This document shows, piece by piece, positions 31,442-53,149 of a stretch of 64,000 nt of DNA. Positions within the stretch are counted from its first letter, which is position 1. Every line of letters begins with the position of its first letter. This stretch comes from Atopsyche davidsoni (lineage: Eukaryota > Arthropoda > Insecta > Trichoptera > Hydrobiosidae), in assembly GCA_022113835.1 (NCBI GenBank), contig JAILWY010000002.1, forward strand, positions 6,798,501 through 6,862,500, given 5' to 3'. Made by a program: the position numbers and the translations under genes. Under the pieces are notes generated by a model. It worked only from the letters and a program-made list of their open reading frames with translations, ran no database searches and was not told where the DNA came from.

Positions 31442-34110
31442 TTAAATATTTCTCTTCTTCAGCTGCAAATGAAGTCCCCCCTTGGGAGAAAGAATGAAAC
31501 TTGATCTTTCAAGTTTCATTGGAATACTCGTCTTCTCGCAGACTGATACTTCGTACTTGGAAAGTATTGAAACAAGCCCAAGTCTGATTTGCATTACTGC
31601 AAATCTATTCCCTATAATAATATATTACAAATTAACATTTGCGAAGGGTTGCTTAAAGTTTTAACTATAATAACTGATTCATGTGGGAATTTTTTATTCA
31701 TTTTACATAAACTAACACTGTTAAGTCAGATTCTAAAGTTTTGTAATTTAATTATTAGTAAATTGGGATAAAAATTCACTGAGTTGGATTTTGTTTGGAA
31801 CGCAAGTATGAGTATGGTAAATATTAAACTTTTTATCAGTAGATCAACAACATTAAGATTATTTCTATGTTTACTGAGAACTGCATAATATAACACAATG
31901 TGCAAAATGTAAAACAGAATCCAATCTTACCAATGCAGAGGCGAGGACCTTCTCCAAAAGGTAAATAAGAGAAATGATGTCTGGAATTAGTGTTTTCTGG
32001 GGTGAATCTTTCTGGATCAAATTTACTAGGTTCTGGGTAGTAATCGGGGTCCATGTGAATTCCCCATGTAGAAACTAATACCGGAGTGTCCTTCTCTATC
32101 ACAATTTCAGTCCCCGGAAGGGTATATTCTTTTGTGCATATTCTAAGTAACACAGGAAAAGGTGGATACTTCCTCAACGTTTCTGCAAATGTTATTTAAT
32201 ATTTATTTTATGTATTATATGTATATAAATTGATTCTCAAAATTAATTCCACACATTACAACAGAGTGATTTTTCATGCACACCTGTATTGGGAGATATT
32301 TGTTGATTATGACAGGGCAATGCTTGCATTATTATGCAATGCCATTGGGCATTATTTTTGGAAAAGTATAATAGTAATTGTTTCCCATAACTATTCAAAT
32401 TGAAATATTAATTCTTTACCTTGGATAACTTTATTGAGGTATGACATTTCTTGGAGAGCGTCGTACGTCACTTTACCTCCATTCTTAGTCACTACTTCAT
32501 CTATTTCTTTCTTTACGGTATCCTGAATTTCAGGGTTCAGTGCCATCTCATACAATGCAAAACCTGCCGTTGTTGAAGATGTTTCAAATCCAGCGACAAA
32601 GAATACGAATACCTGAGCGGCCACCTGAAGCAATGTCAGTCGAGTTCCATCATCAGGTGGAACTTCGTCTCCTTTAATAATAAAAGAAAATAATATATGT
32701 TACACAATTTATAATAAAGGTAGACAGACAGTCATAGATCTTTGGGCTGAAAATATGATCAATTGACTTAAAAATTTTAATTTGCTGTTTCTTTTAGCTA
32801 CTTTTAAAATGGGTCTAAATTGGGAGCTCAAATTTCAGCAATGAAAATATAAGGCAACAGATATTGTTACCATTTTATTGAATTAAATAATAGTTAAATA
32901 TTTTTGTCATTCTATGTTTGTGTAATAAAATATCTGTCAGCTTCAAGACGGGTAGATGTATAGTTTTCAAAGTAAACTTAGAAGATAGATAAAATATTTT
33001 TTCGTACATGTGCTATTTAGTATAAAAAAAACAGATTTTTTTTTCATAGTTTTCAGTGACATATAGCAATAGGATTACGATAAAATGTCTAGATAAATAT
33101 ACTAACATTTAATTATTTTAACACTAAAGCCATTGTGATGCCATTAAAATGATTCTTGCAGTTGAAAATGCTACTTTTAAATATATTTGAGAAGTCATCA
33201 TAGTTTTGAAATTTACGTGAACCATCAATTGTAACAAATAACTACCTGTTTTTTCATCAATTGAACTCTGGTGCATCAGTTGGATCAATAGCTGAAGAAA
33301 GTCGTTCCGTTCGATCGCATTTTCCTCTCGGTACTTCACCATTTCGGTGACGAGATTTATGAAGAAATCGTTGACTTCAGTCCCTAAAATCTTCGTCCTG
33401 TACTTAGTGATCACGTTCGGAAAGAAAAAATCAAAAGTCAAGACTATAATTTCGAGCACGGTCGGACTGAAAGATCTCTTGCCCATCTTGCGAAACTCTG
33501 AATCGGGATTTTTGAAGCTGTTGCACTCTATACCGAAGGCGCAGTTTCCGATCACGTCCATGTTGAAGTTCTCGAAGAGATCCTTGACGTCGACGACGCC
33601 GTCGCTTTGGGCCAGGGTGCCGCTCAGGTGCTGCTTCATCTCCTCGGAGCAGTCCGCCACGATGTCGAACATCTTCCTCATCTTGCTGGAGGTGAAGGTG
33701 GGCGTGAGTTTGTTCCTCAGGTTCTTCCACTTCTCCCCGGTGGCGTTGAACAGGTTCCCGGTGATGGGGTCGCTCTCCTCGTCGTAAACAATACCGTGGT
33801 CGGAAAAGTGGACGAAGTCCTTTACCATGATCGCTTTTAGGAGATCGAGATCATTTATGATCAGAGTCGGCCGCTGGATGATGTATATTCCGGCAAATGG
33901 ATGTTGTTTTGTTTTGAAATATAAACTTTTAAACCACTCTCCGAAGCTTGTGTATTGAAAATTTCCGAACGGCACAGAAGGGGTCGGATTGTAAATGCCT
34001 TTGTTTTTCCAAAAGCTGTATTTGCGCTGGAACCAAACATACACGTAAACTCCCACAAGTATAGTGCAAATGAGAATATCCCACCAAAATGATATCAGAA
34101 TAAATGCCAT
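31442..34110 (-). CDS. Cytochrome P450, CYP6-like (gene B)
   Basis: Exons in transcript order: 33246-34110, 32420-32671, 31931-32182, 31442-31611; 1539 nt, 512 residues. Three phase-1 introns with GT-AG ends, the same positions as in genes C, K and L. The N-terminal anchor begins MAFILISFWWDILIC. Then come helix C WKNLR, helix I FVAGFETSS, ExxR (ETLR), DPERF and heme loop FGEGPRLCIG. The last exon continues [21 protein letters not shown] chose the ATG at 34110 over 34131 because every relative starts with MA-x-x-LISFW. A clear Inr plus DPE lies 92 bp upstream. It is a CYP3-clan microsomal monooxygenase with unknown substrate. Exon 1 differs clearly from the eight V exons, so it is a separate gene. 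Confidence 0.93.
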
Positions 34111-34971: not shown

Positions 34972-36335
34972 TTATTTGGGAGTCCTTTTCTTGAGTGTCA
35001 AGTAAACCCCTCCGTCTGAAGAAAGGATGAAACTCCTGTTGTCGTACTTCATGGGCACGTGCGTCTTATCACAGACTGAGACTTCGTACTTCGAAAGGAT
35101 GGAGACGAGCCCCAGCCTGGTCTGCATCATTCCGAATCTGCTTCCTAAAATACAAGAAATCGTATTTAATATATTAATGAGCTGAACAATTAAAAATAAA
35201 TCATGGAAAAGAGTTTACATCTGAACCTCGTCCTCACACACACGTCGAAAACTAATTATAAATTATACACAAAAAACAATACCAATTACTTGTAAGCATG
35301 TATACTGTAATGACACACCACAGTGCTCCAGTTGTTTCATGCAATGTAACCGTTGAAGCAAAATTTTAAGGGTTTGTCAGGTTTATCGTACCAATACAGA
35401 TCCTCGGGCCTTCCCCGAAGGGGAGGTAAGAGAAGTGGTGTCTGGCGGCCTTGTTTTCAGGGGAGAACCTCTCTGGGTCAAACTTCTTGGGGTCGGGGAA
35501 GAACTTGGGGTCCATCTGTATTCCCCAGATGGGAATCATCACCGGCGTGTCCTTTTCAATGACGATGTCCGTTCCGGGCAGGGTATACTCTTTGGTGCAA
35601 ATTCTGAAGATGACTGGTAGAGGTGGGTACTTCCTCAGCGTTTCTAGATAAACATAAAACATGCATATAACTATGAAGTATCTTTATGTTAACTATATTA
35701 ATCTTCGACACTTCAAATTAAAAGCAAGTGAAGGTTATAGTTTTCACAATAATTAAAAATCTTGAAAATTGTCATTTCATTATTTAAGTATGTACTTGAG
35801 TTTCAGTGACAATAGTTTATTTAAAGAAATGAAACCGTATTTTGATTTCATAAATACGAGAATTATTTTCTGTATTTCTCGTCTCGTCTAAATGACACCT
35901 GCCATAGCAAAGCTCAAAAATTACGTTTTCAAGTGTCAATTCGGAGCAAACATCGTTGTATATTTGATATTCCCATTTAATTTGATAAAATGTCAAACAA
36001 GGCGTATTCCATTCTTTTGATACTTTTATGTAAGCTTCGTGGGCTGAAGACGTCTAAACCTCTGAAGACAAGGCCAGTACCTTCGATGACCTTGGTGAGG
36101 TAGGTCATTTCCCCGAGAGCGTCATAAGTGATCTTCCCGTCGTGGCCGGCCAGCACCTCGTCAATCTCCTCGCGGAGGGCATCCTGGATGTCGGGGTTCA
36201 GCGCCAGCTCGTACAGCGCGAAGCTGGCCGTCGTGGAGGACGTCTCGAAGCCGGCGATGAAGAACACGAACACCTGCGCAGCCAACTGCATCATCGTCAG
36301 CCGGGTCCCGTCATCTGGGGGAGCCTCTCCTTTTC
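34972..36335 (-). other. Constant exons 2-4 shared by the V1-V8 array
   Basis: Exon 2 (36081-36335, 255 nt) begins [17 protein letters not shown] and carries helix I. Exon 3 (35392-35643, 252 nt) carries ExxR to the heme Cys. Exon 4 (34972-35144, 173 nt) carries helix L and the C-terminus. Exons 2 and 3 are symmetrical phase 1-1. They are the only copy of these exons between 37 kb and 56 kb on this strand, although eight exon 1 copies precede them. About 92% of residues match the equivalent exons of gene K, and the introns are also alike. Confidence 0.75.
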
Positions 36336-37913
36336 CTGGTTAAAAAATAATACATTCATTACAGAATAACAACAAGTAGATATCTTACATTTTTTGGATA
36401 ATGTGATTTTTTTATTTTATTCACCATGTCACTTTCAGAAACACCGCATACTCGTTTATCCTTTTAGAAGTCGCAAAAATACTGAAAGTTTTCCACTGTA
36501 GGCAAAACAGCTGTTTTATTGAACGCCTAACGCTTGTTTTATTCGTTCAAATTTTGGCCATTTACTCGTATTTTTTTATGTATTACTTGTTACTTTTGTT
36601 AAACTAACAGCTTTTTACACGCATAACTAACCATTTTTTTGTACAATACATATTTACATTGGTATAATTCATACATACAAATGTATAACACATATCTACA
36701 TTTGTATTTTACATCATGAATATATACATATATACAAATTAACATAAATAAATATGTATATGCTACACAGATTTTCTGTTTCAATGAATGAGATTTTCAA
36801 ATGAATAATATCAATAAATTTTAACTTTTTCGAGACTTTATTAATAATGAGAGTATATTTATATATATATTTTCTTAATTATAGTATTTTGATACTATAA
36901 ATACATCGAAAGATATATTATTAATAAATAAAATAAATACTGGAATTAAAATATAGTTAAGCTCTAAAAAAGTTTATTTGTTTATGGAATTAGCTTGGGT
37001 TATTTGGAGACCTGCGTTGTGAAACGTTATTGGTACCTGCTTCATCTGAGATCGAATTCTGGTGCATTAGTTGGATCAACAACTGAAGAAAGTCATTCCG
37101 TTCGATAGAATTCTCTTCGCGGTGTTTCACCATATCGGACACCGTCTTTATGAAGAAATCGTTAATTTCAGTGCCTATTAACCACGACTTATGCTTTGTT
37201 ATTACATTAGGAATGAAAAAATCAATGGACTGTATGATGCTGACTAAGGGGGTGGGCTCGAACATCCTTTTCCCCATCTTCCTGAACTCGGCATCAGGGT
37301 TTTTAAAGCTGTTGCAGTCGATCCCGAAAGCGCAGTTTCCGATGACATCCGTGTTCAACTTCGCGTACAACTCCTTCACGTCGACAGAATCATTATCCAC
37401 CAGAGCGTCGGCCAAATGTATCTTCATCTCTTCCGAGCAGTTGGCAACAATATCGAACATGTTCTTCATCTTGCTGGACGTAAAAGTCGGTGTCAACTTT
37501 GTCCTCAGGTTCTTCCACTTCTCTCCGGTGGCGTTGAACAGGTGGCCGGCGATCGGTTCCGTCTCCTCGTCGTAATTGAACCCGTGGTCAGAGAAATGCA
37601 CAAAGTCCTTGACAAGAATCTGTTTTACGGAATCCACATCGTTTACGACAAACGTGGGCCGGTGAAGCATGAAGATGCCGACGTGAGGATGTTCCTTCGT
37701 TTCAAAGTATATATCTTTAAAATTTTCTCCGATTTGCTTCTTGCCCATAAACGTGCTCGAAACGTTTCCAAATGGTACGCTCGGTTCGGGATAGAACAAT
37801 CCTTTGTTTTTCCAGTAGCCATATTGCCGGCGGAAAAAAATATACGCAATTATTAAACCGAGTACACTAATTAACAGTAAATCGCACCAAAAACTTATTA
37901 ATATCACTGCCAT
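34972..37913 (-). CDS. Cytochrome P450, CYP6-like (gene C): variable exon V8 plus the shared constant exons
   Basis: Exons 37037-37913 (V8), 36081-36335, 35392-35643 and 34972-35144 give 1557 nt, 518 residues, all introns phase 1. V8 encodes the membrane anchor ([19 protein letters not shown]), the hinge PEPSVPFGN, and helix C WKNLR, up to helix H. The constant exons encode helix I (FIAGFETSS), ExxR (ETLR), DPERF, heme loop [10 protein letters not shown] and the C-terminal [22 protein letters not shown]8 is the nearest of eight tandem exon 1 copies, 701 bp from exon 2, so this pairing is the default reading. Seven further exon 1 copies upstream have no exons 2-4 of their own. Start chosen at 37913 (MAVILIS), not the upstream in-frame Met at 38015, by comparison with relatives. 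Confidence 0.9.
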
Positions 37914-38955
37914 GGCTACGTGAGTTATCGCGGAGCACTGTTTACAAACACTTATGTTGAACACATTTTTTACATTGCTGTTGAAACGAATTAAGGTTTG
38001 TTTGTGATTGAACACTCAGGCGTGCGCTCATGGTCACTGCCAGAGACGAACAGCCTCCGAGGTCAGGCACTGGCACGGCGGCGCCAGGCAGTCGCCGGTC
38101 TTCTCCTTCCACTCCTCGGATGATTTTAAATAAATCACTGAGCTGCCGAATACAAATCCGCAGATGAAAACTGATTTTTCACCGTGTGCGAGGAACAGTA
38201 AAAATAGGACGTATTTTCGTCTATTTCACTTTATCTGTATTGAACAAGTAACACAAGATTGATACTCATGAAATAAATTCAATATATATAACATTAACGG
38301 AAAAATTGCGTGAAGATCGCATACATATGATATATTCCTACTAATAATAAAATTATAAATGTATTACTAATGTAAAAAAAAAATTAACTAGTCTCGATAG
38401 ACATTTGGCATTGGCAGACATTGGCAGGTGTTATGAAAACTTTTATATCTCAAGTTAGTTTGATTTTTTTTCCGTCTAGTAAATTATTACGCAATACATA
38501 ATTGAGATAAAATATTATCACTATCAAAACAAATATGTAAACCGCAAGCTTGTTTTGAAATCGTTTGAATCAAAGTAAGTTATTTATTTTGTTTGATTTT
38601 AAATATGAAATTTGAATTGTTACCAACTTTTTCTCAGCGACACGTCATTCGGATTATTTATTTTAGCAATCAATAAATCAACGAAACCGGAGCGTTTTCG
38701 ATTTATTCTGTGTTGGAATATTCGACTCGGGGCTTCAGACCATAACCTGTGGTCCTATTCCCTAATAATTATTTACGAATACTACACACGAATCTCCATG
38801 GTTGGACGGCATTGAAGGTAGTCAGAGTATTAAAATAGGTCATTGTAAAAAAAAAATCATGCCACTACGGGAGCAAGCTCAAGATCAGCAAACTTTACTG
38901 AAGCTCCTGGTAGCTTCTCCCAATCCCAATAATTTATTTGTAAAAAATCACATAC

Positions 38956-39832
38956 CGGTTTCATCAGAGATGGAACTCTGGTGCATCAGTTGGATCAGCA
39001 GTTGGAGGAAGTCGTTTCGCTTGATGGAGTTCTCCTCGCGGTATTTCACCATATCAGATACCGTCTTCACGAAGAAATCATTAATTTCAGATCCACAAAT
39101 AGTCGTTTTGTACTTCGTTATTAAATTTGGAATAAAGAAATCTATGGTAAAAATTATATTTTCAAGGACACTGGGTTCAAACAGCTTCTTCCCCATCTTC
39201 CGGAACTCGGCGTCTGGATTCTTAAAGCTATTACAGTCGATACCAAAAGCACAGTTTCCGATTATGTCTGTATTTAGTTTCGCGTATAGCTCCTTCACAT
39301 CGACAGAGGTGTCATCTTCCACGGCGTCCGCCAGATACAGCTTCATCTCTTCCGAGCAGTTCGCAACAACATCGAACATATTCTTTATCTTGCTGGAAGT
39401 AAACGTGGGAGTCAACTTGATCCTCAAATTCTTCCACTTCTCTCCGGTAGCGTTGAACAAGTGTCCAGCAATCGGTTCCGTCTCTTCGTCAAAGTGAAAT
39501 CCATGGTCAGAAAAGTGAACAAAGTCCTTGACGAGAATTCTCTTTATCAAATCAACGTCGTTGATAACGAAAGTGGGTCTATGGACCATGAACACCCCAA
39601 CATACGGATGCTCCTTGTTTTCGTGATAAATATTCAAGAAATTTTCTCCAATTTGAGTTTTGCCTCTAAATGTAGAAATTACGTTTCCAAAAGGCACGCA
39701 CGGTTCTGGACTGAAAATGCCTTTATTTTTCCAATAGTTGTACCTGCGACGGAAGCAAACATACGCAAGAACCAAACCGATCACATTGACCAAAACTAAA
39801 TCGAACCAAAAGCTAATTAACACGAACGCCAT
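38956..39832 (-). CDS. P450 variable first exon V7
   Basis: Intact 877-bp exon encoding 292 residues plus one base, ending ISDET then donor GTATGT, phase 1. It has the anchor [19 protein letters not shown], hinge FSPEPCVPFGN, helix C WKNLR and the [20 protein letters not shown] block. The frame stops one codon past the donor, so it cannot be a whole P450. No exon 2-4 lies in the 1 kb before V8, so the nearest acceptor partner is the constant exon at 36335. Its first 44 residues and its promoter are nearly identical to those of gene K, where the same exon type is spliced to C-like exons 2-4. Thus it is compatible with them. It could instead be an orphan exon. Confidence 0.85.
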
Positions 39833-39939
39833 TGTAACTGATTTTATTCAACGTGTATTTTTATTAATCACAAATATTAGGCTTCTAGTTACTATACTAG
39901 AAGCTAGCTCAACACGTCATTTTAATCGATAATCGTTAA

Positions 39940-39973
39940 CGTCTTGTCATGGTCACCGACAATACCAAACTGA
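39940..39973 (-). promoter_or_regulatory. Core promoter (Inr + DPE) of V7
   Basis: Minus-strand TCAGTT with A at 39971 (+1) and AGACG at exactly +28 to +32 (39940-39944), the canonical Drosophila DPE sequence. The predicted 5' UTR is 139 nt. Confidence 0.6.
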
Positions 39974-41112
39974 CAGATTATTTTTTATCATTTTTATCAC
40001 GGCCCGGTACACATGTACCGTTGCAGAGCGACGAGTGCTCACTGAGAGTACAACCTGAGTGCTGACAAACAAATATAATGATGACCACTATCAAATATGC
40101 GCATTCGAAATGCTTAATTTTAATAGTTGATATGTGAAATTATAATAAATAAGCGATATTTATTATAATTCGTCGCATATTTAAAGTTTTCCAACGAAAT
40201 AAAATATCGGAAAATCTGAAATATAATTAAAAAACCAGTCGATAGCGAAGCAGGTCCAATATTCGACTTATTGGTCCTGGATTATTATTTGAATGTTTAC
40301 AAAGGTAAAAAAAAATTATAAGTTGACAATCGAGTATTTTTCCGAATTTATTCGAATCAAAACGATTCTGCCCATCACTACAATGAACAGATTATGTTCC
40401 ATTACCCTCCAGTACATAATTTTACTGCCCAGAGTCGCAATCGCGTGCGATTATTATCAAGTACACAATGACCAAAGAGCATTTTTAATCAAAGATAACA
40501 CGAAAGATTTAAAATGTCAATATTTAATCCAGGCTTACATCTTTAATAGTCAATTTTTAAATATCGTTTCACTTAGTACACAATTTATCTGAATTGAGTG
40601 ATTATATAAATTTCATATTTTTCTCTGGGGCTGCGTACCATGAATCGAGAGCCACCGAATCCCAGTCACCTGACGACAGGGGATTCTTATCAAAAGTAGA
40701 CATGGATTAGCATTTAATTTCCATTACTTAATAAACAAATGTTTTACTTAAATCTTCAGTCAAAAAATGAAAAAAAATTGAATCTTTTTACTTCGTAATA
40801 CGTAATCACATATACTTATGGAATAATTAATACAATAAATCGTTGTTTCATATCATGTGGTTCTAGCAGTTGCAAGTAAAATAGCTGTGATTCAAAGGTC
40901 GCATATCATATAACTAACAATAATATTATATCTGTGATTCATGAAATGACACTCAAGTCAAAACTCGCCTCAACCACACGCAAGCACGCTATAAAGAACC
41001 CATAAGCCTCAAGGTCGCAGGAAATATACTAGCGCCACCCACTGCACGTCCACTAGACAACGTTGTCCGCTTTTTGACGAGTTAAATAATTTTTATTGCA
41101 TAAAAGGAGTAC

Positions 41113-41990
41113 CTGTTTCATCGGAGATAGAACTCTGGTGCATCAGTTGGATCAGCAGCTGGAGGAAGTCATTCCTCTCGATGGAGTACTCTTCGCGGTA
41201 TTTCACCATATCGGATACCGTCTTCACAAAGAAATCGTTCACTTCAGATCCGCTTATCTTCGTTTTATACTTCGTTATAAAGTTAGGTATGAAGAAATCG
41301 AACAAAGCAACCAGCCCTACGAAGATGGTGGGCTTCAACAACCTCGTACCCATCTTCATGAACTCTGCATCTGGATTCTTGAAGCTGTTGCAGTTGATAC
41401 CGAAAGCAAAGTTCCCGATAATATCTGAGGTTAGCTTCGCGTATAACTCCTTCACGTCGACAGTGCTGTCGTCTTCCAAGGCGTCCGCCAGGTACAGCTT
41501 CATCTCTTCCGAGCAGTTCCAAACAACTTCGAACATGTTCTTTATCTTGCTGGAGGTAAACGTAGGGGTCAACTTGGTCCTAAGTTTTTTTCCATTTTTC
41601 CCCAGAAGCGTTAAAGAGATGTCCGGCTATCGGTTCTGTCTCTTCGTCGTAGTAGAACCCGTGATTAGAAAAGTGGACAAAGTCCTTGACTAAAACCCTT
41701 TTTACTAAGTCCACATCGTTTACGACGAACGAGGGCCTGTGAATCATGAACACCCCGAAATAGGGGTGGTCCTTGTTTTCGTCATATAGGGTTTTAAAGT
41801 TTCCCCCGAGCTGTAGTGCACCGCTGACGGTTTTTATGACGTTCCCAAAAGGCACACACGGCTCTGGACTGAATATGCCTTTATTTTTCCAGTAGCTGTA
41901 TCTGCGACGAAAACAAACGTAAGCGATAATCCAACTAATAAAATTTACCAGAAGTAAATCGTACCAAAAACTTATCAGCAATAACGCCAT
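41113..41990 (-). pseudogene. P450 variable first exon V6, one-base frameshift
   Basis: Two open pieces join at a frameshift: 41990 to about 41592 (MALLLISFWYDLLLVNFIS..., ending GEKWKK) and about 41585 to 41113 ([19 protein letters not shown]...). The exon is 878 bp; relatives are 877. The extra base lies in a T7 run on the + strand (41585-41591). This is a likely site for a sequencing or assembly error, but a true mutation is possible. The donor after DETG is GTACTC in the usual phase. All other family blocks are present and unbroken. With six T the exon would read through, and only one residue of WKNLR would change. Confidence 0.75.
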
Positions 41991-42084
41991 AACAACTTAT
42001 TAAACAAAAAATAGATAAAACCACTATTGTTTTTTAAATCTTTAAATTATTTTATTTTTCATTTAGAAGACGTGCTCTCGATAT

Positions 42085-42120
42085 AACTGCTACTTCCAAA
42101 GTAACAGATTTTATTTTATA
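42085..42120 (-). promoter_or_regulatory. Core promoter (TATA + Inr) of V6
   Basis: Minus-strand GCAGTT with A at 42088 (+1) and TATAAAA at 42114-42120, starting at -32. No DPE match. The predicted 5' UTR is 98 nt. Confidence 0.5.
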
Positions 42121-42371
42121 GATAATCCGTACAGTCCCGCGTGTGAAAATAATAATAAATGTTTAACCAAGTGTGGCAAATTAACATAATAAATAAACAT
42201 TATCTCCCTGAGGTAAAGAATTTATATTGGTAGAATATTGTTCATTGAGAAACATAACATGAAAAACAAATCATAAATCATCTAGAACTAAAAATAATCA
42301 TCGATGTCACGACACTGCAACTTCTTCTGTTACTGTACAAAAGATGTCAGACGATCGCCAACCTTTCAAAG

Positions 42372-42430
42372 TCGGCGAAACCGGTCACCAATAAAAATTA
42401 ACACGTGGAAAAAATCACTCAAGTATGTAA
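42372..42430 (+). repeat. Copy of the GGCGAAACCGGTCAC repeat
   Basis: CGGCGAAACCGGTCACCAAT, followed by a block ending AATCACTCAAGTA, matches the unit at 14433-14508. Just before it, GCCAAC and GTCGGC could pair as a short stem. Confidence 0.75.
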
Positions 42431-44368
42431 TTATATTTAAAATAAATAAATAAAATCACTGTCTTAAAATAAATAAATACGCGGTTAATAAAATATTACA
42501 AACCTACCGTAAATACTTGATTTCCTAAATTAGATCTTATAGATAAAAACATTTCAACTTTATTTAGTATATTATTTTAAACAATTTAACTAATACAATG
42601 CGTTTTCTCTTCTTCTAACATATCAAATGCACACGAAACAGCAAATGTTGACGGTATAAATTTACATGTAAATTATGTGGTGCATTGAATAAATATTTAA
42701 TATAAAAAGAAGTGACAAAGTTATGTAAAACGTAATATTTGTTATTAAATAATATTTTATTAATTTATTTACGAATATAAATCAACTCTATCTCGATTCA
42801 GAATGAATAAAACGAGGCGCTCAAATCCACGGCACTTAAGACAAAGGCAGGCTGGGAATAACAAAATATATAGTTAAATATATAATTTATATAAATTATG
42901 TATTTTTAATTTACAGTTGAAGAAATCGTTTCATGCTTTATTCATATCCCATATTCATAATCGCTTAAAAAGTTAAAACGCTACATATCTCGCATTCAAA
43001 GTACAAGAGTCACGCACAAGTCATCTGTAGCCGCACATCCTTTGTATACACATAATTGAATCACTAAAAGGATGGTGTGGATTATACATGTCTCTGTTAT
43101 ATCCTTTATATCCCATCGACCATATATCCCTTGTCCAGTTGATCTCGAGGATGCCGTGCATATCAAACAAACAACGCTTTAGTCCAAAATACGAAATGTA
43201 CGATCACCCAAAATACGAAATGCACTTTTCAAAATATGCAAAAGACAATAAATAAACATGATAGTCAAAATATTTAATGAACAATTTTTGCTAGGTTATA
43301 ACGATCAGTTTTATTTCATTATTTCTCAACAGCTCTGAGATATTTTAATGCGACAAATAATTAAGAATTAACTAAAAGTTTTGTCGAAAAAATTATGTGC
43401 CCGAATCGCCGATAAATTTTTAAGTTTAAATTAATTTGATTAATTACCTGATTTCATAGTTTTTTAAACGTACACTATATATTATTTGTCATAAAATAAC
43501 TTCACTTCACCAACTATTGTCTACTGGGCGATGAATGAGTCATTTTTTTTATCTTTCACATTCTTGCTTGTCCCGACAAGAATTATGTTCTATTAAAAGT
43601 ATATCACGTTAATAACCACTTTAATAATAAAACTTGTTCCGATATTTTTGATTCGTTTAATTTGGGATATAATGCACCATTATTTTGTCTGATTCCACAC
43701 TGCAGTCTGCAGCCACCACAGAGGGGCCCATTATACGTCCAATGTCAGGGTCATCGACCTTGCAACTCTCGACTGCGGTGCAGTTTGAGCAGTCACATGG
43801 TCAAGCATGGAATAAATGCAGCAAGCCAATAATGTTAAATGAAAAATTTATCATTTCATCAAAATCAACAACAACCCATCGAGTAAATGGTTGAGGTTCA
43901 AGTGGTTGAGTAATCAATTTATAGAGCCACTTTGCTGATATATCTGTTTCGCGATTATTTTCCCGTAGTAGCAATAAGTCAGAATGTTGACAATATTTTG
44001 TTTAAAATGTGTGTTTCTTTAACACATTGAGACAATAAAAGAATTAACAACAAGGAAGCCCGGGATTCTGTTTCTTCCTTAAAAAACAAATTGATTTTGT
44101 GCTTCAAATACATCACAAACGAAAAATAAGCGATGGACGTTACAAAGTGTCATGTTGTGACAATCTACACGAATATGATATATATCATAGACATTAATAG
44201 CTAGGTTTTCAATTGTGTTCTCGTGTTCTTCTTTGTGCTATGGAGCAAAGAATATCACATACACCATAAAGAAAAACACATTATATTGTGGAAAACATTC
44301 AATAAATTTCATACTGCAAATAACCGAAAACTTCACTCCATTGCTATTTATATAAGTGTTTTTATTAC
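42431..44368. other. Spacer between V5 and V6
   Basis: AT-rich, no P450 exon 2, 3 or 4 found on the minus strand. A short GC-richer segment at about 43690-43800 has no recognisable coding content. Nearby CCAAAATACGAAATG occurs twice (about 43176 and 43208) as a small direct repeat. Confidence 0.55.
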
Positions 44369-45245
44369 CTCCATCCTCATCATCCACAGAGCCGTTGTTT
44401 TTCAGCTGAATTAACAATTGCAGGAAGTCATTCCTCACGATGCCGTTATCCTCGCGGTACTGGATGGTGTTCTTCACGGTGTTGAAGAAGAATGAGTTCA
44501 CTTCTTCTCCCAAAACACTTGTCTTGAGAAGTTTAATGATCCCCGGCGCAAACAACACTAAAAATTGCAAAAATGACCGGAATACCGACAGTTCAAATAT
44601 CTGTCTCCCCATTTTCCTGAACTCGGCATCAGGATTCTTGAAGCTGTTGCACTCGATGCCGAACGCGCAGGATCCGATGACGTCCGTGTTGAACTTTGCT
44701 AGTAGATCCTTGAGGTCTAACGAAGAGTTCTTCTCAATGCTATGCTCCAAATAGTCGACCATCTCCAGCCCGCAATGCGCCACGGTCCCGAACATGTTGC
44801 GGATCCTGCTGGAGGTGAAGGTGGGAGTGAGCTTGTTGCGCAGATTCTTCCACCTTTCACCGGTCAGGTTGAAAAGATGCGCCGAGAGAGGCTCATACTT
44901 GTCGTCCATCTTTGGATTGTGATCAGAGAAATGAATGAAATCCTTCACCAAAATTGTTTTCACAATAGCTAAGTCATTAATGACTAAAGTTTTTCTTTGA
45001 AGCATGAAAACACCAAAGAAAGCGTGCTGTTTATTTTGGAAATACAAATCGTAGAACGTCTGCCCGAAAGTGGCGGTTTTCAGGAAGAGGCCTTTGATAT
45101 TTCCGACAGGGAAGATTGGCTCCGGACCAGGGACTCCTTTGTTCTTCCAGTACCGGTAGTTCTGCCTCGACCAGACGTAGATGGCCCCGACGAGGGCGAC
45201 GACGCATATGACCACGTCCCACCAAAATGACACGAGTAACACCAT
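44369..45245 (-). CDS. P450 variable first exon V5
   Basis: Intact 877-bp exon, 292 residues, starting MVLLVSFWWDVVICVVALVG with a typical anchor. Hinge GPEPIFPVGN, helix C WKNLR and [20 protein letters not shown] follow. It ends DDEDG then donor GTAATA in phase 1. Translation through the donor meets no P450 sequence and stops after 43 residues. There is no helix I, ExxR or heme-loop exon in the 2.4 kb before V6. It belongs to a subgroup with V2-V4 (MVLLVSFWWD start), distinct from V6-V8. The promoter upstream carries an Inr and a CRE at the same spacing as V3 and V4. Confidence 0.85.
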
Positions 45246-45342
45246 GGTATGCTTACGTCCACTTTATAGAAAGAGATGTCGTTATAACTTCACTTTTATT
45301 GTACAACTGATCACAATTTCACTGTCTATTAGAGATTCGACG

Positions 45343-45410
45343 CGGCCTGCCTATCGGACGCTCGGATCTTAACTGAATTTTGACGTCAAAAACAAGGTCA
45401 CTTTAATCTT
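45343..45410 (-). promoter_or_regulatory. Core promoter of V5 with CRE
   Basis: TCAGTT with A at 45374 (+1). Palindromic TGACGTCA at 45381-45388 (-14 to -7). GATTAAAG lies about 30 bp upstream. GGCCG at +28 to +32 has one mismatch to the DPE consensus. The predicted 5' UTR is 129 nt. Confidence 0.5.
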
Positions 45411-45883
45411 CAATGACCAAATGACTCATGGACGGAATTTCGCCGACAAAACATGGGCTCAGTGTATTCAATTTTTTTTTATTTATTACGCCCTTAACTT
45501 GTATCGATGGTTTGAAAGATTTATATTTAAAAAAGTTTTCATATCATTAAACGATAATATTTTTAATTTAAAAGTATATAGTATATATTAATAAAGGCCT
45601 AATTTTATAAAATACATATATGGACATTTAATGTAGCTTTTCGTAAAAAGCCTTCAGAGCAGTACGAAATATCTCGAACACTAATTATCGTCATTCTCGT
45701 TTATGACGTCATGGGAAAAATTAAATTTTAATACGAAAAATAATGAAAAATAAAAAATTACGAATTAGTCAAAGAGTTAACTCTACACAATTAAGATATT
45801 TAACGACGTTTTTTTAATACTAAAATTTAGTAATAGCTGATATAGTTACGATAAAATAAATCGAGCCGAAGATCTTTCGCCAT

Positions 45884-46042
45884 CACATATGTCGCGACAC
45901 AACTTGCAATTAGCCAATAAGGACCTATTTTGCGTTGTTTACTAGAGAAAACCATCCAAAGGTAACCAAAATAAAGGGAAGCTATTGGGTTTTCAAATTT
46001 TTGGATTTCAAATCGGTCACATGTTGTGTCACTGCGTGTGTA
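45884..46042. mobile_element. MITE, AGCCAATAGC family
   Basis: The left end has CACATATGTCGCGACACAAC and TTGCAATTAGCCAATAAGG. The right end has AAGCTATTGGG, AAATCGGTCACATGTTGTG and TCACTGCGTGTG, roughly the inverse of the left. It lies in the V4-V5 spacer. Related to the copy at 27370-27525. Confidence 0.6.
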
Positions 46043-46339
46043 GCAAGCTGGCAAGTCCTGGCCTTGAGACCGCAATATATGTTTTTTAATTACAAAACCA
46101 AATACGCAAATCATCCATGCCTGACCTGTAGGAACATGTCTGCGTTGAAATGGTTGTTTTATTATTTTTTTCAAAATATGTCTGGGGAAGAAGCATAGTT
46201 ATATACTATAGTTTGTATTATTATCGATATTCAGTAATGCTGAGAGTGTTTCTTTACAACGAGCATGTAAGACAAGGAATCCAAGGTACATGTCAACAAG
46301 AAAAACAATGTTTTATGCACTTTAATAAATTACGGTTAC

Positions 46340-47216
46340 CTGCACTTTCCTCGTCTACAGAGCCATTGTTCTTCAGCTGAATTAACAACTGCAGGAAGTC
46401 GTTCCTCACGATGCCGTTATCCTCGCGGTACTGGATGGTGTTTTTCACGGTATTGAAGAAGAATGTGTTCACTTCGTCTCCGAGCATACTAAGTTTTATG
46501 TTTCTGATCAACCACGGCGCAAACATCACGCAAACACGCAAAAACGCCTGGAAACGAGATAGTTCGAAAATGCGCTTGCCCATTTTCCTGAACTCGGCAT
46601 CAGGATTCTTGAAGCTGTTGCACTCGATGCCGAACGCACAGGAGCCGATGACGTCCGTGTTGAACTTCGCTAGTAGATCTTTAAGTTCCAACGAAGGGTT
46701 CTTCTTGATGTTATGCTCCAAATAGTCGACCATCTCCAGCCCGCAATGCGCCACGGTCCCGAACATGTTGCGGATCCTGCTGGAGGTGAAGGTGGGAGTG
46801 ACCTTGTTGCGCAGATTCTTCCACTTTTCTCCGGTGAGGTTGAAAAGATGCGCCGAGAGAGGTTCATACTTTTCGTTCATTTTCAAATTGTGGTCAGAAA
46901 AATGAATAAAGTCCTTTACCAAGATCGTCTTTATAATATCCAAATCATTAACGACTAACGTTTTTCGTTGTACCATAAAAATTCCAGCATAGGGATGCTG
47001 TTTATTCTGGTTATATAGATCTAAGAAAGTATGCCCGAAAGTGGTGGATCTCAGAAAGAGACCTTTGGTGTTTCCAAGAGGGAAGGTCGGCTCCGGGCCG
47101 GGGACTCCCTTGTTCTTCCAGTACCGGTAGTTTTGCCTCGACCAAACGTAGAAGGCCCCGACGAGAGCGACGATGCATATGAGCACATCCCACCAAAACG
47201 ACACGAGTAGCACCAT
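46340..47216 (-). CDS. P450 variable first exon V4
   Basis: Intact 877-bp exon, 292 residues, starting MVLLVSFWWDVLICIVALVG, with hinge GPEPTFPLGN, helix C WKNLR and [20 protein letters not shown]. It ends DEESA then donor GTAACC in phase 1. The start at 47216 matches its neighbours; an in-frame Met three codons upstream is not needed. The 970 bp between its end and V5's 5' UTR hold a MITE but no P450 exon. Its upstream ~270 bp are almost identical to those of V3, showing that promoter and exon duplicated together. Confidence 0.85.
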
Positions 47217-47500
47217 GGCAAACACACGTCCACTCTATAGCAAGAATACGACGTTATAACCTCACTTTTAACGTACAGCTGATAACAATTTTTCTGCCTC
47301 TGAGAGCCGACACGACCTACCTGCGGGACGCTCGGATTCCAACTGCCTATTGACGTCAAAACAAGCCTTTTAATCCTAGTGCAGTGTTTTCAAACTTTTG
47401 AATTTATTAATTAGGTAGATTATTTATACAATGTTGAAATAATTTTATTGTATATATATAAATCAATAAAAATAATTTTTCAAAGATTTATTAATATTGT
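47217..47500. repeat. Duplicated V4 upstream region (copy 1)
   Basis: Nearly identical to 49264-49540 upstream of V3, with only scattered substitutions and small indels. It covers the 5' UTR, promoter, CRE and about 120 bp beyond. Confidence 0.85.
47313..47374 (-). promoter_or_regulatory. Core promoter of V4 with CRE
   Basis: GCAGTT with A at 47344 (+1). TGACGTCA at 47351-47358 (-14 to -7). TTAAAAGG near -30. GGTCG at exactly +28 to +32 (47313-47317) fits the DPE consensus. The predicted 5' UTR is 128 nt. Confidence 0.6.
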
Positions 47501-47988
47501 TAAACGTGAAAGCATGCCGCAGGGAAATGTTGGTAAAATCAATTAAATATCGTATCAAAGAGATTTATTTTCTTTTTCAGATCCTTTGGCTCTATTTAAT
47601 AAAAAAATATATAAGTTACATTTCAATTTATTATAAAAGCTTATTAAAACGTACAAATGCAATATTATTGATATTAATATTGTGATTGAAAAAACATATT
47701 TAATATTACATTTAATAATTAATAACTCGATTCATACATTAATGATATTTTTTTTTTTTTATTTCAATAAGAATTTAAATTAAATCAAAAGCTTGTTCTT
47801 TGAAAATCTAAATATGAAACATAAATTGTCATAACGAATAAAAAAATTGAGTTTTATTTTTTGCCATCTTTACAACAATTGACCATAGTATGCCTAAATA
47901 ATAACTGGAATACAATTCTAAAAAGGTCTTCATACTGGACGTATGAAATTAATATCGTTTCCTAAAAAATCTTGAAATCAGATGGTGC

Positions 47989-48183
47989 CTAGATTCGAAA
48001 ATCACCCCAGCGCTTGTAAAGACCCCCAAAAACATAAAAGTCACCATTAGTTACAGTCCGCGGGGTCATCGGCACCATTAACAGGAACCGGTCATTCGTT
48101 CTCGCATATCTTTCAACCTGTGGAGCTGACACTGAAATGTTTTTACTTTCAATCGCATCAATAAGAAAAATTAATAAAAGCAT
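47989..48183 (-). other. Small unassigned open frame between V3 and V4
   Basis: Minus-strand frame of 64 codons beginning MLLLIFLIDAIES, a short hydrophobic start that could resemble a signal peptide, then an unfamiliar polar sequence ending in YKRWGDFRI. It does not match P450 exon 2, 3 or 4. The equivalent segment is missing from the spacer between V2 and V3. I do not recognise it and it may be chance. Confidence 0.15.
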
Positions 48184-48386
48184 TCTATCTTATTTACATA
48201 TAAACCATCGTTCATTATCGTCATCAAAAATTAGGTCAGTCAGTAATTGAAAATATGCGTATAATTTACTGTGAAACCAAACAGATAATAAACGAGCATT
48301 AATAAGTATTGCATATCTGTAGTTAAAAGCAACGTTGTCAGTAGGTTAAGAGATAATCCAAAGTCTTATTATAATTGTTCAATAAC

Positions 48387-49263
48387 CTGTTTTTTCCTCG
48401 TCAATAGAGCCGGTGTTCTTCAGCTGAATTAACAACTGCAGAAAGTCGTTCCTCACGATGCCGTTTTCCTCGCGGTATTGGATGGTGTTTTTCACGGTGT
48501 TGAGGAAGAATGAGTTTACATCCTCTCCTAGGATACTAGTTTTCAAGGGCTTGAGCAGCCACGGCGCGAACATCATGCACATTTGCAGAAACGACTGGAT
48601 ACCAGATAGTTCGATAACGCGCTTGCCCATTTTCCTGAATTCGGCATCAGGATTCTTGAAGCTGTTGCACTCGATGCCGAACGCGCAGGATCCGATGACG
48701 TCCGTGTTGAACTTTGCTAGTAGATCCTTGAGGTCTAACGAAGGGTTCTTCTCAATGCTATGCTCCAAATAGTCGACCATCTCCAGCCCGCAATGCGCCA
48801 CGGTCCCGAACATGTTGCGAATCCTGCTGGAGGTGAAGGTGGGAGTGAGCTTGTTGCGCAGATTCTTCCACTTTTCTCCGGTCAGGTTGAAAAGATGCGC
48901 CGAGAGAGGTTCATACTTGTCGTTCATCTTCGGACTGTGGTCAGAGAAATGAGTAAAATCCTTCACCAAAATAATTTTTACAAGATCCAAGTCATTAATA
49001 ACTAAAGTTTTTCGTTGCAGCATGAATACTCCAAAGAAAGGGTGTTGTTTATTCTGGTTATACAGATCATAAAACGTGTGACCAAAAGTGGTCGTTCTCA
49101 AGAAGAGACTTGTGGTGTTTCCAAGAGGGAAGCTCGGCTCCGGGCCGGGAATTCCTTTGTTCTTCCAGTACCGATAGATCTGCCTCGACCAAACATAGAA
49201 GGCCCCGACGAGAGCGACGATGCATATCAGCACATCCCACCAAAACGACACGAGTAGCACCAT
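48387..49263 (-). CDS. P450 variable first exon V3
   Basis: Intact 877-bp exon, 292 residues, starting MVLLVSFWWDVLICIVALVG, with helix C WKNLR and [20 protein letters not shown]. It ends DEEKT then donor GTTATT, weaker than the other donors but a GT in the same phase. It is almost identical to V2 from about residue 29 onward. Its first ~27 residues and its promoter match V4 instead. Thus it looks like a crossover product. No constant exon lies before V4. Confidence 0.85.
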
Positions 49264-49540
49264 GGCAAACACACGTCCACTGTATAGCAAGAATACGACG
49301 TTATAACCTCACTTGTAACGTACAACTGATAACAATTTTCCTGCCTCTGAGCCGACACGACCTTCCCGCGGAACGCTCGGATTCCAACTGCCCTTTGACG
49401 TCAAAACAAGCCTTTTAATCCTAGTGCAGTGTTTTCAAACTTTTGAATTTATTAATTAGGCACATTATTTTTACAATGTTGAAATAATTTTATTGTATAT
49501 ATATAAATCAATAAAAATAATTTTTCAAAGATTAAATGCA
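49264..49540. repeat. Duplicated V3 upstream region (copy 2)
   Basis: Partner of 47217-47500. The similarity ends at about 49535, after CAAAGATTAA. Confidence 0.85.
49358..49420 (-). promoter_or_regulatory. Core promoter of V3 with CRE
   Basis: GCAGTT with A at 49389 (+1). TGACGTCA at 49396-49403 (-14 to -7). GGTCG at +28 to +32 (49358-49362). Same layout as V4. The predicted 5' UTR is 126 nt. Confidence 0.6.
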
Positions 49541-50307
49541 TTCCTTATTCTAAAGGTTTTTTTTTTTTTTTCTAATAAATTTACTTTTAATATGATAGAT
49601 ATGTGTTTTTCCGATTTAATGGAGATTATTATGACCGATTGATTTAAGCATTTAGGTGTCCTTTTTAAAATTGGAAATAAAAGATTACACATAAACCTAC
49701 GGTAAAAGATTAGTTTAAAAATTAAATCAATTATTTTTTTAACAAACTTTGGTTTTGAAAAATCATAATTTTATCAAATTTATCAACATCTTCAAGACTT
49801 TATTTGACCTTGTAAAAGGACGAAAAATAAATAATAAAAAAATAGGTAAATATAAATTTTAATTTTTATAATATTCTGTAAATAAACCAGCTTTCAGCCC
49901 AGTAAAGTGATAATTAAATAAATGAAATAATAAAACGATTTCAATTTCCGAGTGAGATATTTCATTCGGTGTTTTGTATTTGAAACGTGTCATCATATTT
50001 TTTTAACTGTCGATTTATTTTTCTTTGTTGAATATTGTTTGTTTTACAGAATATTAAAAAAGCTTTAAAGTTCTCGCATATCTTTCAACCTGTGGAGTTG
50101 TCCACAAACAAATCGTCGGCAAACCATCGTTCATTATCGTCATCAAAAATTAGATCTGTCAGTAATTGAAAATATGCGTATAATTTACTGTGAAACCAAA
50201 CAGATAATAAACGAGCATTAATAAGTATTGCATATCTGTAGTTAAAAGCAACGTTATCAGTAGGTTAAGAGATAATCCAAATTATTAAAGTATAATTGTT
50301 CAATAAC

Positions 50308-51184
50308 CTGTTTTTTCCTCGTCAATAGAGCCGGTGTTCTTCAGCTGAATTAACAACTGCAGAAAGTCGTTCCTCACGATGCCGTTTTCCTCGCGGTATT
50401 GGATGGTGTTTTTCACGGTGTTGAGGAAGAATGAGTTTACATCCTCTCCTAGGATACTAGTTTTCAAGGCCTTGAGCACCCACGGCGCAAACATCATGCA
50501 CATTTGCAAAAACGACTGGAGACCAGATAGTTCGAAAATGCGCTTGCCCATTTTCCTAAATTCGGCATCAGGATTCTTGAAGCTGTTGCACTCGATGCCG
50601 AACGCGCAGGATCCGATGACGTCCGTGTTGAACTTTGCTAGTAGATCCTTAAGGTCTAACGAAGGGTTCTTCTCAATGCTATGCTCCAAATAGTCGACCA
50701 TCTCCAGCCCGCAATGCGCCACGGTCCCGAACATGTTGCGGATCCTGCTGGAGGTGAAGGTGGGAGTGAGCTTGTTGCGCAGATTCTTCCACTTTTCTCC
50801 GGTCAGGTTGAAAAGATGCGCCGAGAGAGGTTCATACTTGTCGTTCATCTTCGGATTGTGGTCAGAGAAATGAGTAAAATCCTTCACCAAAATAATTTTT
50901 ACAAGATCCAAGTCATTAATAACTAAAGTTTTTCGTTGCAGCATGAATACTCCAAAGAAAGGGTGTTGTTTATTCTGGTTATACAGATCATAAAACGTGT
51001 GACCAAAAGTGGTCGTTCTCAAGAAGAGACTTGTGGTGTTTCCTAGAGGGAAGCTCGGCTCCGGGCTGGGGACTCCTTTGTTTTTCCAGTACCGATAGAT
51101 CTGCCTCGACCAGACGTAGAAGCCCCCGACGAGAGCGACGATGCATATCAGCACATCCCACCAAAACGACACGAGTAGCACCAT
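50308..51184 (-). CDS. P450 variable first exon V2
   Basis: Intact 877-bp exon, 292 residues, starting MVLLVSFWWDVLICIVALVG, hinge SPEPSFPLGN, helix C WKNLR, ending DEEKT then donor GTTATT, phase 1. It is nearly identical to V3, and the ~170 bp 3' of its donor (about 50130-50307) match those 3' of V3 (about 48210-48386). Intronic flank and exon therefore duplicated together. Upstream sequence differs from V3-V5 and lacks the CRE, yet keeps an Inr and a perfect DPE. The ATG at 51184 matches relatives; an upstream in-frame Met at 51232 is ignored. Confidence 0.85.
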
Positions 51185-51267
51185 GGTAAGTAGCACACCA
51201 ACGCAATGTTTCACAAGGCTAACCGCAAACAACCTTCGTCACCGAGCAAATCACTGGAAGACCGATA

Positions 51268-51301
51268 CGTCTAGCCCGACGGACGCTCGCCACTCAACTG
51301 G
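51268..51301 (-). promoter_or_regulatory. Core promoter (Inr + DPE) of V2
   Basis: CCAGTT with A at 51299 (+1). AGACG at exactly +28 to +32 (51268-51272). No CRE at the position used by V3-V5. The predicted 5' UTR is 115 nt. Confidence 0.55.
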
Positions 51302-52270
51302 TGTTTGAAATTTGATCTTAGCCGAATCAACCTTCAGGATCAAAATTTCGTTGATCTTGGTCACGGTACATATTAAGTATATAAATAATAGTTACGTCGA
51401 TCGTTGTCAAAATCACTAGCCTTACTGACGTTTATTCAATTCTACTATCTAATATGATTAACGATTATCGCAGTGCCTCTTCACATATATTAGAAAAAAA
51501 AACGCTTATCAAACAAGTGATCATAAAATGTGTCTTTAAATATTACAATAATAATAGCCACACGAGTTATCAAAACAACACGTAGTTAAAATGAATATTT
51601 ATTTTGAAAGGAACATTTATATTATATTATACGGGAGATATCCTAATTCAGATAGACTGAATGGGGAGTTTAAATATCCCGTTAAAAAGCATCGGTGTCT
51701 AAATTAGGAAGAAGTGGGTGAGTAGATATTTTTTTTATTAATGTTTTCTAAATGCACGAAGACATTGATATTATTACATGCGGGCGACATTCAAGAAAAG
51801 TATTCAAAAAAAATACCTTACAATCCATACATTCATCAATTGCTGGCACTATATAATATAATTTGTATTTTTTTATACTGTGATAAATATGAAATATATA
51901 TATATATATATATTAGCACTGATAAAAAAGGAGTCAGTGACCTCAAAGCTTTTATATATTATCAAATTTTTTTTGACAAGATTTAACCTCTTGAGTTCAT
52001 GAGACTTGGTGAAAACAACGATATCTAAAACTTATAAAAAAAATTATTGATCAGAAAATATTGGCGTTAAACATAGGCATTTTGATTCATTAGGATTCAT
52101 CAAAGTTATAATTGGTAAATATACTATAACTCAAAATTATCGTATGTAATATAAAAAATACACAGCATACACACAAATGTATCATTGAAATATTTAGGGT
52201 CGTGGTCGTTAACCAGTTTAAGGTAAGTTCAAGGAGAGTTAATTGGGATTATAACAATAAGTTTCCTTAC
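51302..52270. other. Spacer between V1 and V2
   Basis: AT-rich, with a (TA)n tract at about 51895-51915. No P450 exon 2-4 found. Confidence 0.55.
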
Positions 52271-53149
52271 CCAAAATCTCATCATCGATACATCCTTTAT
52301 CCTTTATCTGCATCAGCAGTTGCAGGAAGTCATTGCGTACGATGTTGTTCTTCTCGCGGTACTCTATTGTGTCCTTCATCAGGTTGAAGAAGAAGTCAGT
52401 CACATCTCTTCCCAGCAGACTCCACTTAACGAAAAAACTCATTTTCGGTACGAACACTACCAAAAAATCCAGTATAGAAGTAATCAGATTCGGGTGGAAT
52501 ATTTTTGATCCCATCTTTCTGAACTTTGAATTGGGATTCAAGAAAGAGTTGCATTCAACCCCAAACGCGCAAGATCCTATAACATCCGTGCTGAACTTTT
52601 CCAGCAGGTCCTTGACGTTCGTTTCATCATATTGGTGGATGTTACTCTCGATGTACTCTTGCATTCCGGTGGCGCAGTCCCTGACAACTTCGAACATGTT
52701 CTTCATCTTGCTGGAGGTGAAGGTCGGCGTCAGCTTGACTCTCAGGTTCTTCCACTTTTCCCCGCGGGCGTTGAACAGATGCGCGGAGAACGGCTCATAT
52801 TTCTCGTCCAAACTATTCCAGTGATCAGTGAAGTGGTCGAAGTCTTTGAGAAGGATCATCTTGATCAGTTCTAGATCGTTCACCAGCACGGTGCTCCTCT
52901 GCACCATGTATATCCCTGCGAACGGTTGAGCTTTTGTCTTCTGGTAAAGATTTAAGAACCCCTCGCCGAAGCCTTTCTTTTCGTGAGAATATCTCCAATA
53001 TTGCCAAAAATCATATGCGGCTTGGGGCCTTTCACCCCTTTCCTTTCCCAATATTGAAGGGCGTACTGCAGCCATAGACACAAGCCACCGACCAATAAAC
53101 TAAACACCATGAACAAATCCCACCAAAATGATATCAAAATTAACGCCAT
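52271..53149 (-). pseudogene. P450 variable first exon V1, one-base frameshift
   Basis: The most distal exon 1 copy. It opens MALILISFWWDLFMVFSLLVG at 53149 and reads to about 52980 (FGNIGDILTKRK). The frame must then shift by one base near 52965-52985 to continue GFGEGFLNLYQKTKAQPFAG to the donor. The exon is 879 bp; 880 would restore phase. It ends DDEIL then GTAAGG, a good donor in the array's phase. Helix C WKNLR and FGVECNSFLNPNSKFRKMGS are present. It is more diverged than V2-V5. A lost base, a polymorphism or an assembly error are all possible. An Inr-like CAGTC lies near 53247. Confidence 0.75.

What the first reader, a model, noticed from the sequence alone, without database searches (positions are those of the whole stretch)
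34972..53149. UGT1A/protocadherin-like P450 locus: eight tandem first exons upstream of one set of constant exons
On the minus strand, eight exon 1 copies (V1-V8) precede a single exon 2-3-4 set. Six copies are exactly 877 bp and open throughout; the other two differ by one frameshifting base. All end in a phase-1 GT donor compatible with the acceptor at 36335. I found no helix I, ExxR or heme-loop exon between any of them. In an ordinary tandem P450 array each copy would have its own. Long intact frames, shared phase and individual promoters argue against debris. The predicted output is up to eight chimeric P450s from one locus by promoter choice and cis-splicing over as much as 16 kb. Insect UGT genes and vertebrate UGT1A use this design; I know of no P450 array organised this way.
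Basis: partly seen in the sequence, partly recalled or inferred. Interest (0 to 1): 0.95.

Follow-up and report, generated by a model that had tools for sequence, protein, structure and literature searches.

The report
Caddisfly P450 gene with swappable starts
In what looks like a caddisfly genome, eight alternative first exons of a detoxification enzyme (a cytochrome P450) line up in front of a single shared set of end exons, a layout known from vertebrate UGT1A detoxification genes that could let one gene make several enzymes with different substrate pockets.

Summary
On the minus strand, eight P450 first exons (53149-37037; six open at exactly 877 bp, V1 and V6 frameshifted) precede one exon 2-3-4 set (36335-34972). 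No exon 2-4 or relic was found in the spacers by blastn, tblastn or unfiltered HMM search.

Three things favour function over debris. V2-V5 show dN/dS 0.17-0.25, with no complete gene of their type found where I could look. V3 looks like a crossover product of V2 and V4, so exon-1-only units duplicate as such. In the caddisfly Arctopsyche grandis, NCBI models 'P450 6a14 isoform X3' and 'X4' share 225 identical C-terminal residues from the start of exon 2, yet are 47% identical before it.

I conclude, at 0.8, that this is a UGT1A-type variable-first-exon P450 locus: promoter choice plus cis-splicing onto a constant catalytic half. Splicing is unshown (no RNA). Poly(A)-like hexamers are not depleted in the spacers, four of eight promoter-flank comparisons show no conservation, and class-by-class orthology with A. 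grandis is only suggestive.

The parts
52271..53149 (-). V1, variable first exon, 879 bp, frame broken near codons 57-60; donor GTAAGG
   Evidence: groups with A. grandis X3 exon 1 at 84/86 and 88/87 support, below the starred level
50308..51184 (-). V2, variable first exon, 877 bp, open; donor GTTATT
48387..49263 (-). V3, variable first exon, 877 bp, open; likely V2/V4 crossover product
46340..47216 (-). V4, variable first exon, 877 bp, open; donor GTAACC
44369..45245 (-). V5, variable first exon, 877 bp, open; donor GTAATA
41113..41990 (-). V6, variable first exon, 878 bp, frameshifted in an A run; donor GTACTC
38956..39832 (-). V7, variable first exon, 877 bp, open; donor GTATGT; near 5' flank like that of the complete gene at 58795
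37037..37913 (-). V8, proximal first exon, 877 bp, open; donor GTACCA
36081..36335 (-). constant exon 2 (helix I, AGFETSS)
35392..35643 (-). constant exon 3 (ETLR, FDPERF, heme loop [11 protein letters not shown])
34972..35144 (-). constant exon 4 with stop codon
49264..49533 (-). conserved 5' flank of V3 (94.9% over 272 columns with that of V4; 74% over 155 columns with V5), putative own promoter
56281..58795 (-). neighbour: complete four-exon paralogue G58 (upstream flank of the array)
31442..34110 (-). neighbour: complete four-exon paralogue G33 (downstream flank)

Best explanation
A UGT1A-type variable-first-exon P450 locus in a caddisfly-like insect. Each usable first exon has its own promoter. 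A transcript starting at one first exon runs through the downstream ones, which act as exons only when transcription starts in front of them, and its phase-1 donor is joined to the acceptor at 36335. Products are 518-residue CYP6-like enzymes: the exon-1 half carries the membrane anchor and the N-terminal substrate-contacting parts (B-C and F-G regions, roles recalled), and the shared exons 2-4 carry helix I, ExxR, PERF and the heme loop. Shown: layout, no private exons 2-4 found, six open frames, selection on V2-V5, full-length P450 match of one predicted product. Inferred: promoter use, cis-splicing, and the enzymes' different substrates.
For: Layout 8:1 with clean spacers, against 5:5 and 7:8 N-part to heme-exon groups in two other clusters of this genome. 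dN/dS among the six pairs of V2-V5 is 0.17-0.25 at dS 0.05-0.54; in a substitution-only neutral simulation 0.3% of 2000 copies stay open at 0.2 changes per site. V2-V5 have no complete gene of their kind in the window. V2 and V3 share 187 bp of 3' flank at 95.7%, and V3 and V4 share 272 columns of 5' flank at 94.9%, so V3 arose as an exon-1-only unit. Near 5' flanks are conserved in four of eight pairs compared (V3/V4, V3/V5, V4/V5, V7/G58). A. grandis models X3 and X4 (P0008, P0027) share an identical 225-residue C-terminus beginning at the residues of exon 2 and are 73/155 identical before it; of six pairs sharing 60 or more identical C-terminal residues among the 277 proteins fetched, this was the only one with N-part identity below 0.7. 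A V5+constant product matches Pfam p450 over positions 2-456 of 462, 368 bits.
Against: No transcript evidence. Two of eight first exons are broken as assembled. The poly(A) hexamer AATAAA is not depleted on the sense strand of the spacers (41 found, 19 expected from a first-order model; antisense 50), so read-through must be explained. Four of eight flank comparisons (V2/V3, V7/V6, V7/V8, V1/V2) were at background. Gene conversion among copies (patchy identity, and synonymous as well as nonsynonymous change high in the same stretch) can prolong open frames. Both A. grandis models lack their N-terminal part, and X1 and X2 were not among the 120 best hits of any of three searches. Holding X3 and X4 together as one clade is not rejected (p-AU 0.152).
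Confidence: 0.8

Rival explanations
1. Relic exons: partial tandem duplications left seven unused first exons, and only V8 is joined to exons 2-4. Solo 'detritus' exons are common in P450 clusters (recalled).
For: Two of eight are frameshifted; AATAAA is not depleted; four of eight flank comparisons are at background; gene conversion blocks.
Against: dN/dS 0.17-0.25 over dS up to 0.54; eight of eight donors keep GT; where flanks are conserved, conservation sits near the ATG; A. grandis isoform pair; neutral simulation.
Confidence: 0.13
2. The V exons are expressed but end otherwise: as truncated proteins by polyadenylation in the spacers, by trans-splicing, or joined to the exon 2 of the next gene downstream at 32671.
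For: AATAAA hexamers on the sense strand of every spacer, 3 to 8 each; G33's exon 2 is the next same-strand exon 2 downstream.
Against: A truncated P450 lacks the heme loop and would hardly stay under purifying selection; the A. grandis models show two first-exon parts joined to one C-terminal part.
Confidence: 0.05
3. Assembly artefact: exons 2-4 of each copy were lost or collapsed in assembly.
For: The copies are similar, and V2/V3 are 97.8% identical.
Against: Genome in 80 contigs, window on a 13 Mb contig and without N; most of each spacer has no match in the others; complete, similar neighbours are present with all exons; isoform models with the same junction in another species.
Confidence: 0.02

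Closest known systems
Vertebrate UGT1A locus
   Same: Many unique first exons with own promoters in front of common exons. [quoted passage not shown] That the variable half binds the substrate and the constant half the cofactor is recalled.
   Different: Unrelated enzyme family (heme monooxygenase, not glycosyltransferase); UGT1A splicing is established, here it is not.
Clustered protocadherin loci (recalled)
   Same: Tandem variable first exons joined to a constant set by promoter choice and cis-splicing.
   Different: Adhesion proteins with stochastic promoter choice; nothing here speaks for stochastic choice.
P450s with alternative coding first exons, such as Drosophila Cyp4d1 (recalled; one search found no paper holding both 'Cyp4d1' and 'alternative promoter')
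   Same: One P450 gene, alternative N-terminal coding exons.
   Different: A few exons, as I recall two, not an array of eight, and a different CYP clan.
Arctopsyche grandis 'putative cytochrome P450 6a14' isoforms X3/X4 (NCBI models P0008, P0027)
   Same: Identical C-terminus from exon 2 on, different first-exon parts; C-terminus 181/224 identical to the window's constant exons.
   Different: Gene models only, N-terminally incomplete; genomic layout not seen here.
Ordinary tandem CYP6 cluster
   Same: Same family, neighbourhood and exon structure; four complete members in this window.
   Different: Each copy normally has its own exons 2-4; seven here do not.

Membership tests
UGT1A-type variable-first-exon locus (as a design) | several intact coding first exons in tandem, same strand, upstream of one constant exon set | tested here: met
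   six open of eight, one set
UGT1A-type variable-first-exon locus (as a design) | no private constant exons between the first exons | tested here: met
   no relic by three search methods, with positive control
UGT1A-type variable-first-exon locus (as a design) | donor phase compatible with the shared acceptor | tested here: met
   phase 1 in the six open exons; six 518-aa products without internal stops
UGT1A-type variable-first-exon locus (as a design) | own promoter for each first exon | tested here: inconclusive
   near 5' flanks conserved in V3/V4, V3/V5, V4/V5 and V7/G58; none in V2/V3, V7/V6, V7/V8, V1/V2; no start-site data
UGT1A-type variable-first-exon locus (as a design) | transcripts joining different first exons to the constant set | not testable with these tools
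   no RNA reads; indirect support from A. grandis isoform models
UGT family | glycosyltransferase sequence | tested here: not met
   the only Pfam match of the V5 product is p450 PF00067; it works like UGT1A, it is not a UGT
Cytochrome P450, CYP6-like (CYP3 clan) | P450 domain with helix I, ExxR, PERF and heme-cysteine motifs | tested here: met
   PF00067 368 bits; [28 protein letters not shown] in translation; best solved relative CYP3A4
Cytochrome P450, CYP6-like (CYP3 clan) | over 40% identity to named CYP6 members (family rule, recalled) | tested here: met
   51% over 98-99% of the query to P0032 and P0034, which sources call P450 6a13 and 6a14; no official name assigned
Ordinary tandem P450 array | each copy has its own heme exon | tested here: not met
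   seven of eight copies lack it; two other clusters of the genome keep about 1:1

The most novel reading that the evidence does not exclude
The first P450 locus built like UGT1A or the protocadherins: a caddisfly array in which four to six independently promoted substrate-binding halves share one catalytic half. It would predate the split from Arctopsyche and grow by duplicating first exons alone, a cheap way to add detoxification enzymes.
Probability: 0.7. Interest if true: 0.82.

Novelty: new variant of a known kind. Interest (0 to 1): 0.74.

Why it matters
P450 diversity is usually thought to grow by duplicating whole genes. Here the unit of duplication would be the N-terminal half alone, with the catalytic half shared, the same solution UGT1A reached in another detoxification family. 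It would mean that P450 gene counts miss enzymes, that one mutation in the constant exons hits all products at once, and that a natural domain-swap series exists for testing which P450 half sets the substrate. Caddisflies are widely used water-quality indicators (abstract of PMC6302954), so their detoxification genes are of practical interest.

Tried and rejected
Looked for hidden exons 2-4 in the spacers with blastn (word 7), tblastn (word 2, no masking) and hmmsearch --max, using the exons of four of the window's five sets: only chance-level hits. Looked for A. grandis isoforms X1 and X2 with a longer query scored on the constant part: not among the 120 best listed. Tested AATAAA depletion in spacers: the opposite, 41 against 19 expected, told as evidence against. 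Tested whether F-G variability is positive selection: pN/pS 0.46 in residues 216-245 against 0.20 elsewhere, below 1, with synonymous change also high there, so no claim of positive selection. Termite pairs with a shared C-terminus (Cryptotermes P0034/P0053 and P0050/P0077) were set aside because their N-parts are 88% and 73% identical. Literature: ten searches, seen as listings that were cut (one search listed 15 of 2,301), with passages of PMC9209448, PMC4654499, PMC8010143 and PMC6302954. No paper on a multi-first-exon P450 array was seen in them; the library holds only open-licence papers.
Full report
What is there. The window lies at positions 6798501-6862500 of a 13 Mb contig in a 370.7 Mb, 80-contig genome. 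Its P450 content, by tblastn with four exon-1 proteins and two exon 2-4 proteins at E 1e-3, is twelve first exons and five sets of exons 2-4. Four complete genes (28392-30368 +, 34110-31442 -, 58795-56281 -, 59719-63686 +) enclose an array on the minus strand of eight first exons with one set of exons 2-4 at its 3' end. No further P450 exon was found in the 10 kb beyond either window end; one chance-level match, E 0.94. Exon limits were read from the sequence and checked by translation (for the 59719 gene the exon 2 end was not settled by translation). Six first exons are 877 bp, open and phase 1. V1 (879 bp) and V6 (878 bp) are frameshifted. The six predicted products have 518 residues without internal stops, and the V5 product matches Pfam p450 from position 2 to 456 of 462.

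Are private exons 2-4 hidden? None was found. The seven spacers between V1 and V8, the G58-V1 spacer and the V8 intron gave only chance-level matches to the exons 2-4 of four window sets: best E 0.32 by blastn, 0.67 by tblastn, 5.2 by hmmsearch without filters. The same HMM found 15 exon 2-4 pieces in the window at E 2e-56 to 7e-12. Two other clusters of the genome differ: in 40 kb of contig C14 there were 5 N-part and 5 heme-exon groups, and in 40 kb of C28 there were 7 and 8 (8 of the 20 stretches fetched were counted). So loss of heme exons is not the rule in those two clusters.

Function or debris. Among V2-V5 the six pairs have dN/dS 0.17-0.25 at dS 0.054-0.542 (Nei-Gojobori, my own script). 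V7 against the complete gene G58 gives 0.245 at dS 0.33, and exons 2-4 of the two sets give dN 0.057 over dS 0.229, so V7 looks about as constrained as the exons of complete genes. In a substitution-only simulation, 0.3% of 2000 neutral copies stayed open at 0.2 changes per site. V2-V5 form a clade without any complete gene of the window (support 96/94), so their constraint is not borrowed from a complete neighbour; a donor elsewhere in the genome is not excluded. I looked for one in part only. The Pfam scan of the genome scored 92 of 307 candidates and missed V6 and the first exon of the 59719 gene; most of its N-part matches lie in this window, but one at C10:310024-311004 (model 1-319, 155.5 bits) and long matches on C13 do not. 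Against the loci fetched from that list, the V4 exon-1 protein reaches 34-40% identity on C13 (up to 194 bits, L001-L003) and has no match in L005, the C10 place, at E 1e-3. In the 200 kb of other clusters it reaches at most 86 bits. Members of V2-V5 are 83-97% identical to each other, so none of these is of their kind. A whole-genome search with an exon-1 protein did not complete.

How the array grows. V2 and V3 are 97.8% identical and share 187 bp of 3' flank at 95.7%. V3 and V4 share 272 columns of 5' flank at 94.9%, though their exons are 87.7% identical. V3 is therefore best read as a crossover product with V4's 5' side and V2's 3' side, made when neither had exons 2-4. Identity along the exons is patchy, a sign of conversion.

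Promoters. Eight pairs of 5' flanks were compared in steps of 100 alignment columns going up from the ATG. V3/V4 gives 94, 94, 78 and then 43-62, apart from one step of 99 about 1.1-1.2 kb up, which reaches the preceding copy; V3/V5 gives 74 and then 49-61, with 78 in the last step; V4/V5 gives 75, 64 and then 46-61; V7/G58 gives 86 and then 46-57. The shuffled control is 46-60. V2/V3, V7/V6, V7/V8 and V1/V2 show no conservation. Where present, the conserved flank is short, as expected of a promoter and 5' leader. V2's lack of a flank like V3's fits the crossover; V1, V6 and V8 have no demonstrated promoter.

Where the copies differ. Of 70 variable residues among the 292 of V2-V5, 19 lie in the 30 residues 216-245 (hypergeometric p 1.2e-6, interval chosen after seeing the data; best 30-residue stretch reached by 1 in 10,000 permutations). 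By the alignment to CYP3A4 this is the F-G region; its role as a substrate recognition region is recalled. pN/pS there is 0.46 against 0.20 elsewhere. This fits diversification of substrate contacts, but does not show positive selection.

Independent support. Among insect proteins, the two closest by identity to a V5+constant product are NCBI models of the caddisfly Arctopsyche grandis (Hydropsychidae), 'putative cytochrome P450 6a14 isoform X3' (66%) and 'X4' (67%) (longer fusion models of other insects rank higher by bit score at lower identity). That the window is from a caddisfly rests on this. The two models are identical over their last 225 residues, starting at the residues that open the window's exon 2, and 73/155 identical before that point. 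Among the 277 proteins fetched, six pairs share an identical C-terminus of 60 or more residues; the A. grandis pair is the only one whose N-parts are under 70% identical, the others being 73-100%. These 277 are best hits of three searches, not a survey. The A. grandis C-terminus is 81% identical to the window's constant set and 77% to G58's. In exon-1 trees X3 falls with V1 (84/86; 88/87) and X4 with V2-V5 (89/88; 79/89), below the program's starred level, and keeping X3 with X4 is not rejected (p-AU 0.152). By plain identity X3 is nearest V4 (58%), and X4 is 51-52% to V2-V5 but also 51% to V7, V8 and G58. So a shared design is well supported, and orthology class by class is only suggestive. 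That NCBI isoform models usually rest on RNA reads is recalled, not checked; both models lack the N-terminus, and X1 and X2 were not among the best 120 of any search.

Against. No RNA was available. AATAAA is more frequent in the spacers than a first-order model predicts (41 against 19), and there are 50 on the other strand, so nothing suggests that spacers were cleared of poly(A)-like hexamers. Two of eight first exons are broken; human UGT1A likewise has 13 first exons for nine functional enzymes (PMC9209448, passages).

Verdict. The design is that of UGT1A, in an unrelated enzyme family. It works like UGT1A by inference; it is a P450 by membership. I saw no paper describing such a P450 array in the searches named under Tried and rejected. 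A smaller precedent, alternative coding first exons in single P450 genes, is recalled.

Noticed in passing
window 49264-49533, 47217-47488, 45255-45408: The 5' flanks of V3, V4 and V5 share a TTGACGTCAA-like stretch (CRE-like, by recall; V4 reads TGACGTCAAT), and those of V2-V5 share CAGTT and GAGCG blocks; possible common regulation.
   Followed up: partly
window 56281-58795 and 36335-34972: G58 and the constant set are close copies (exons 2-4 dS 0.229), and V7's exon and near 5' flank resemble G58's, so the two may exchange sequence.
   Followed up: partly
G000 contig C28, about 3.24-3.39 Mb: A large P450 cluster with many heme exons; in the 40 kb read, the N-part is split over several exons, unlike the unsplit 877-bp first exons of the window.
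   Followed up: partly
P0034, P0053, P0063, P0050, P0077 (Cryptotermes secundus): Termite P450 models that share identical blocks (225, 336 and 184 residues): exon sharing, conversion or model error in another insect order.
   Followed up: partly
window 3425-3808 +: A 127-residue open frame that is not P450-like by eye, possibly from a mobile element.
   Followed up: no
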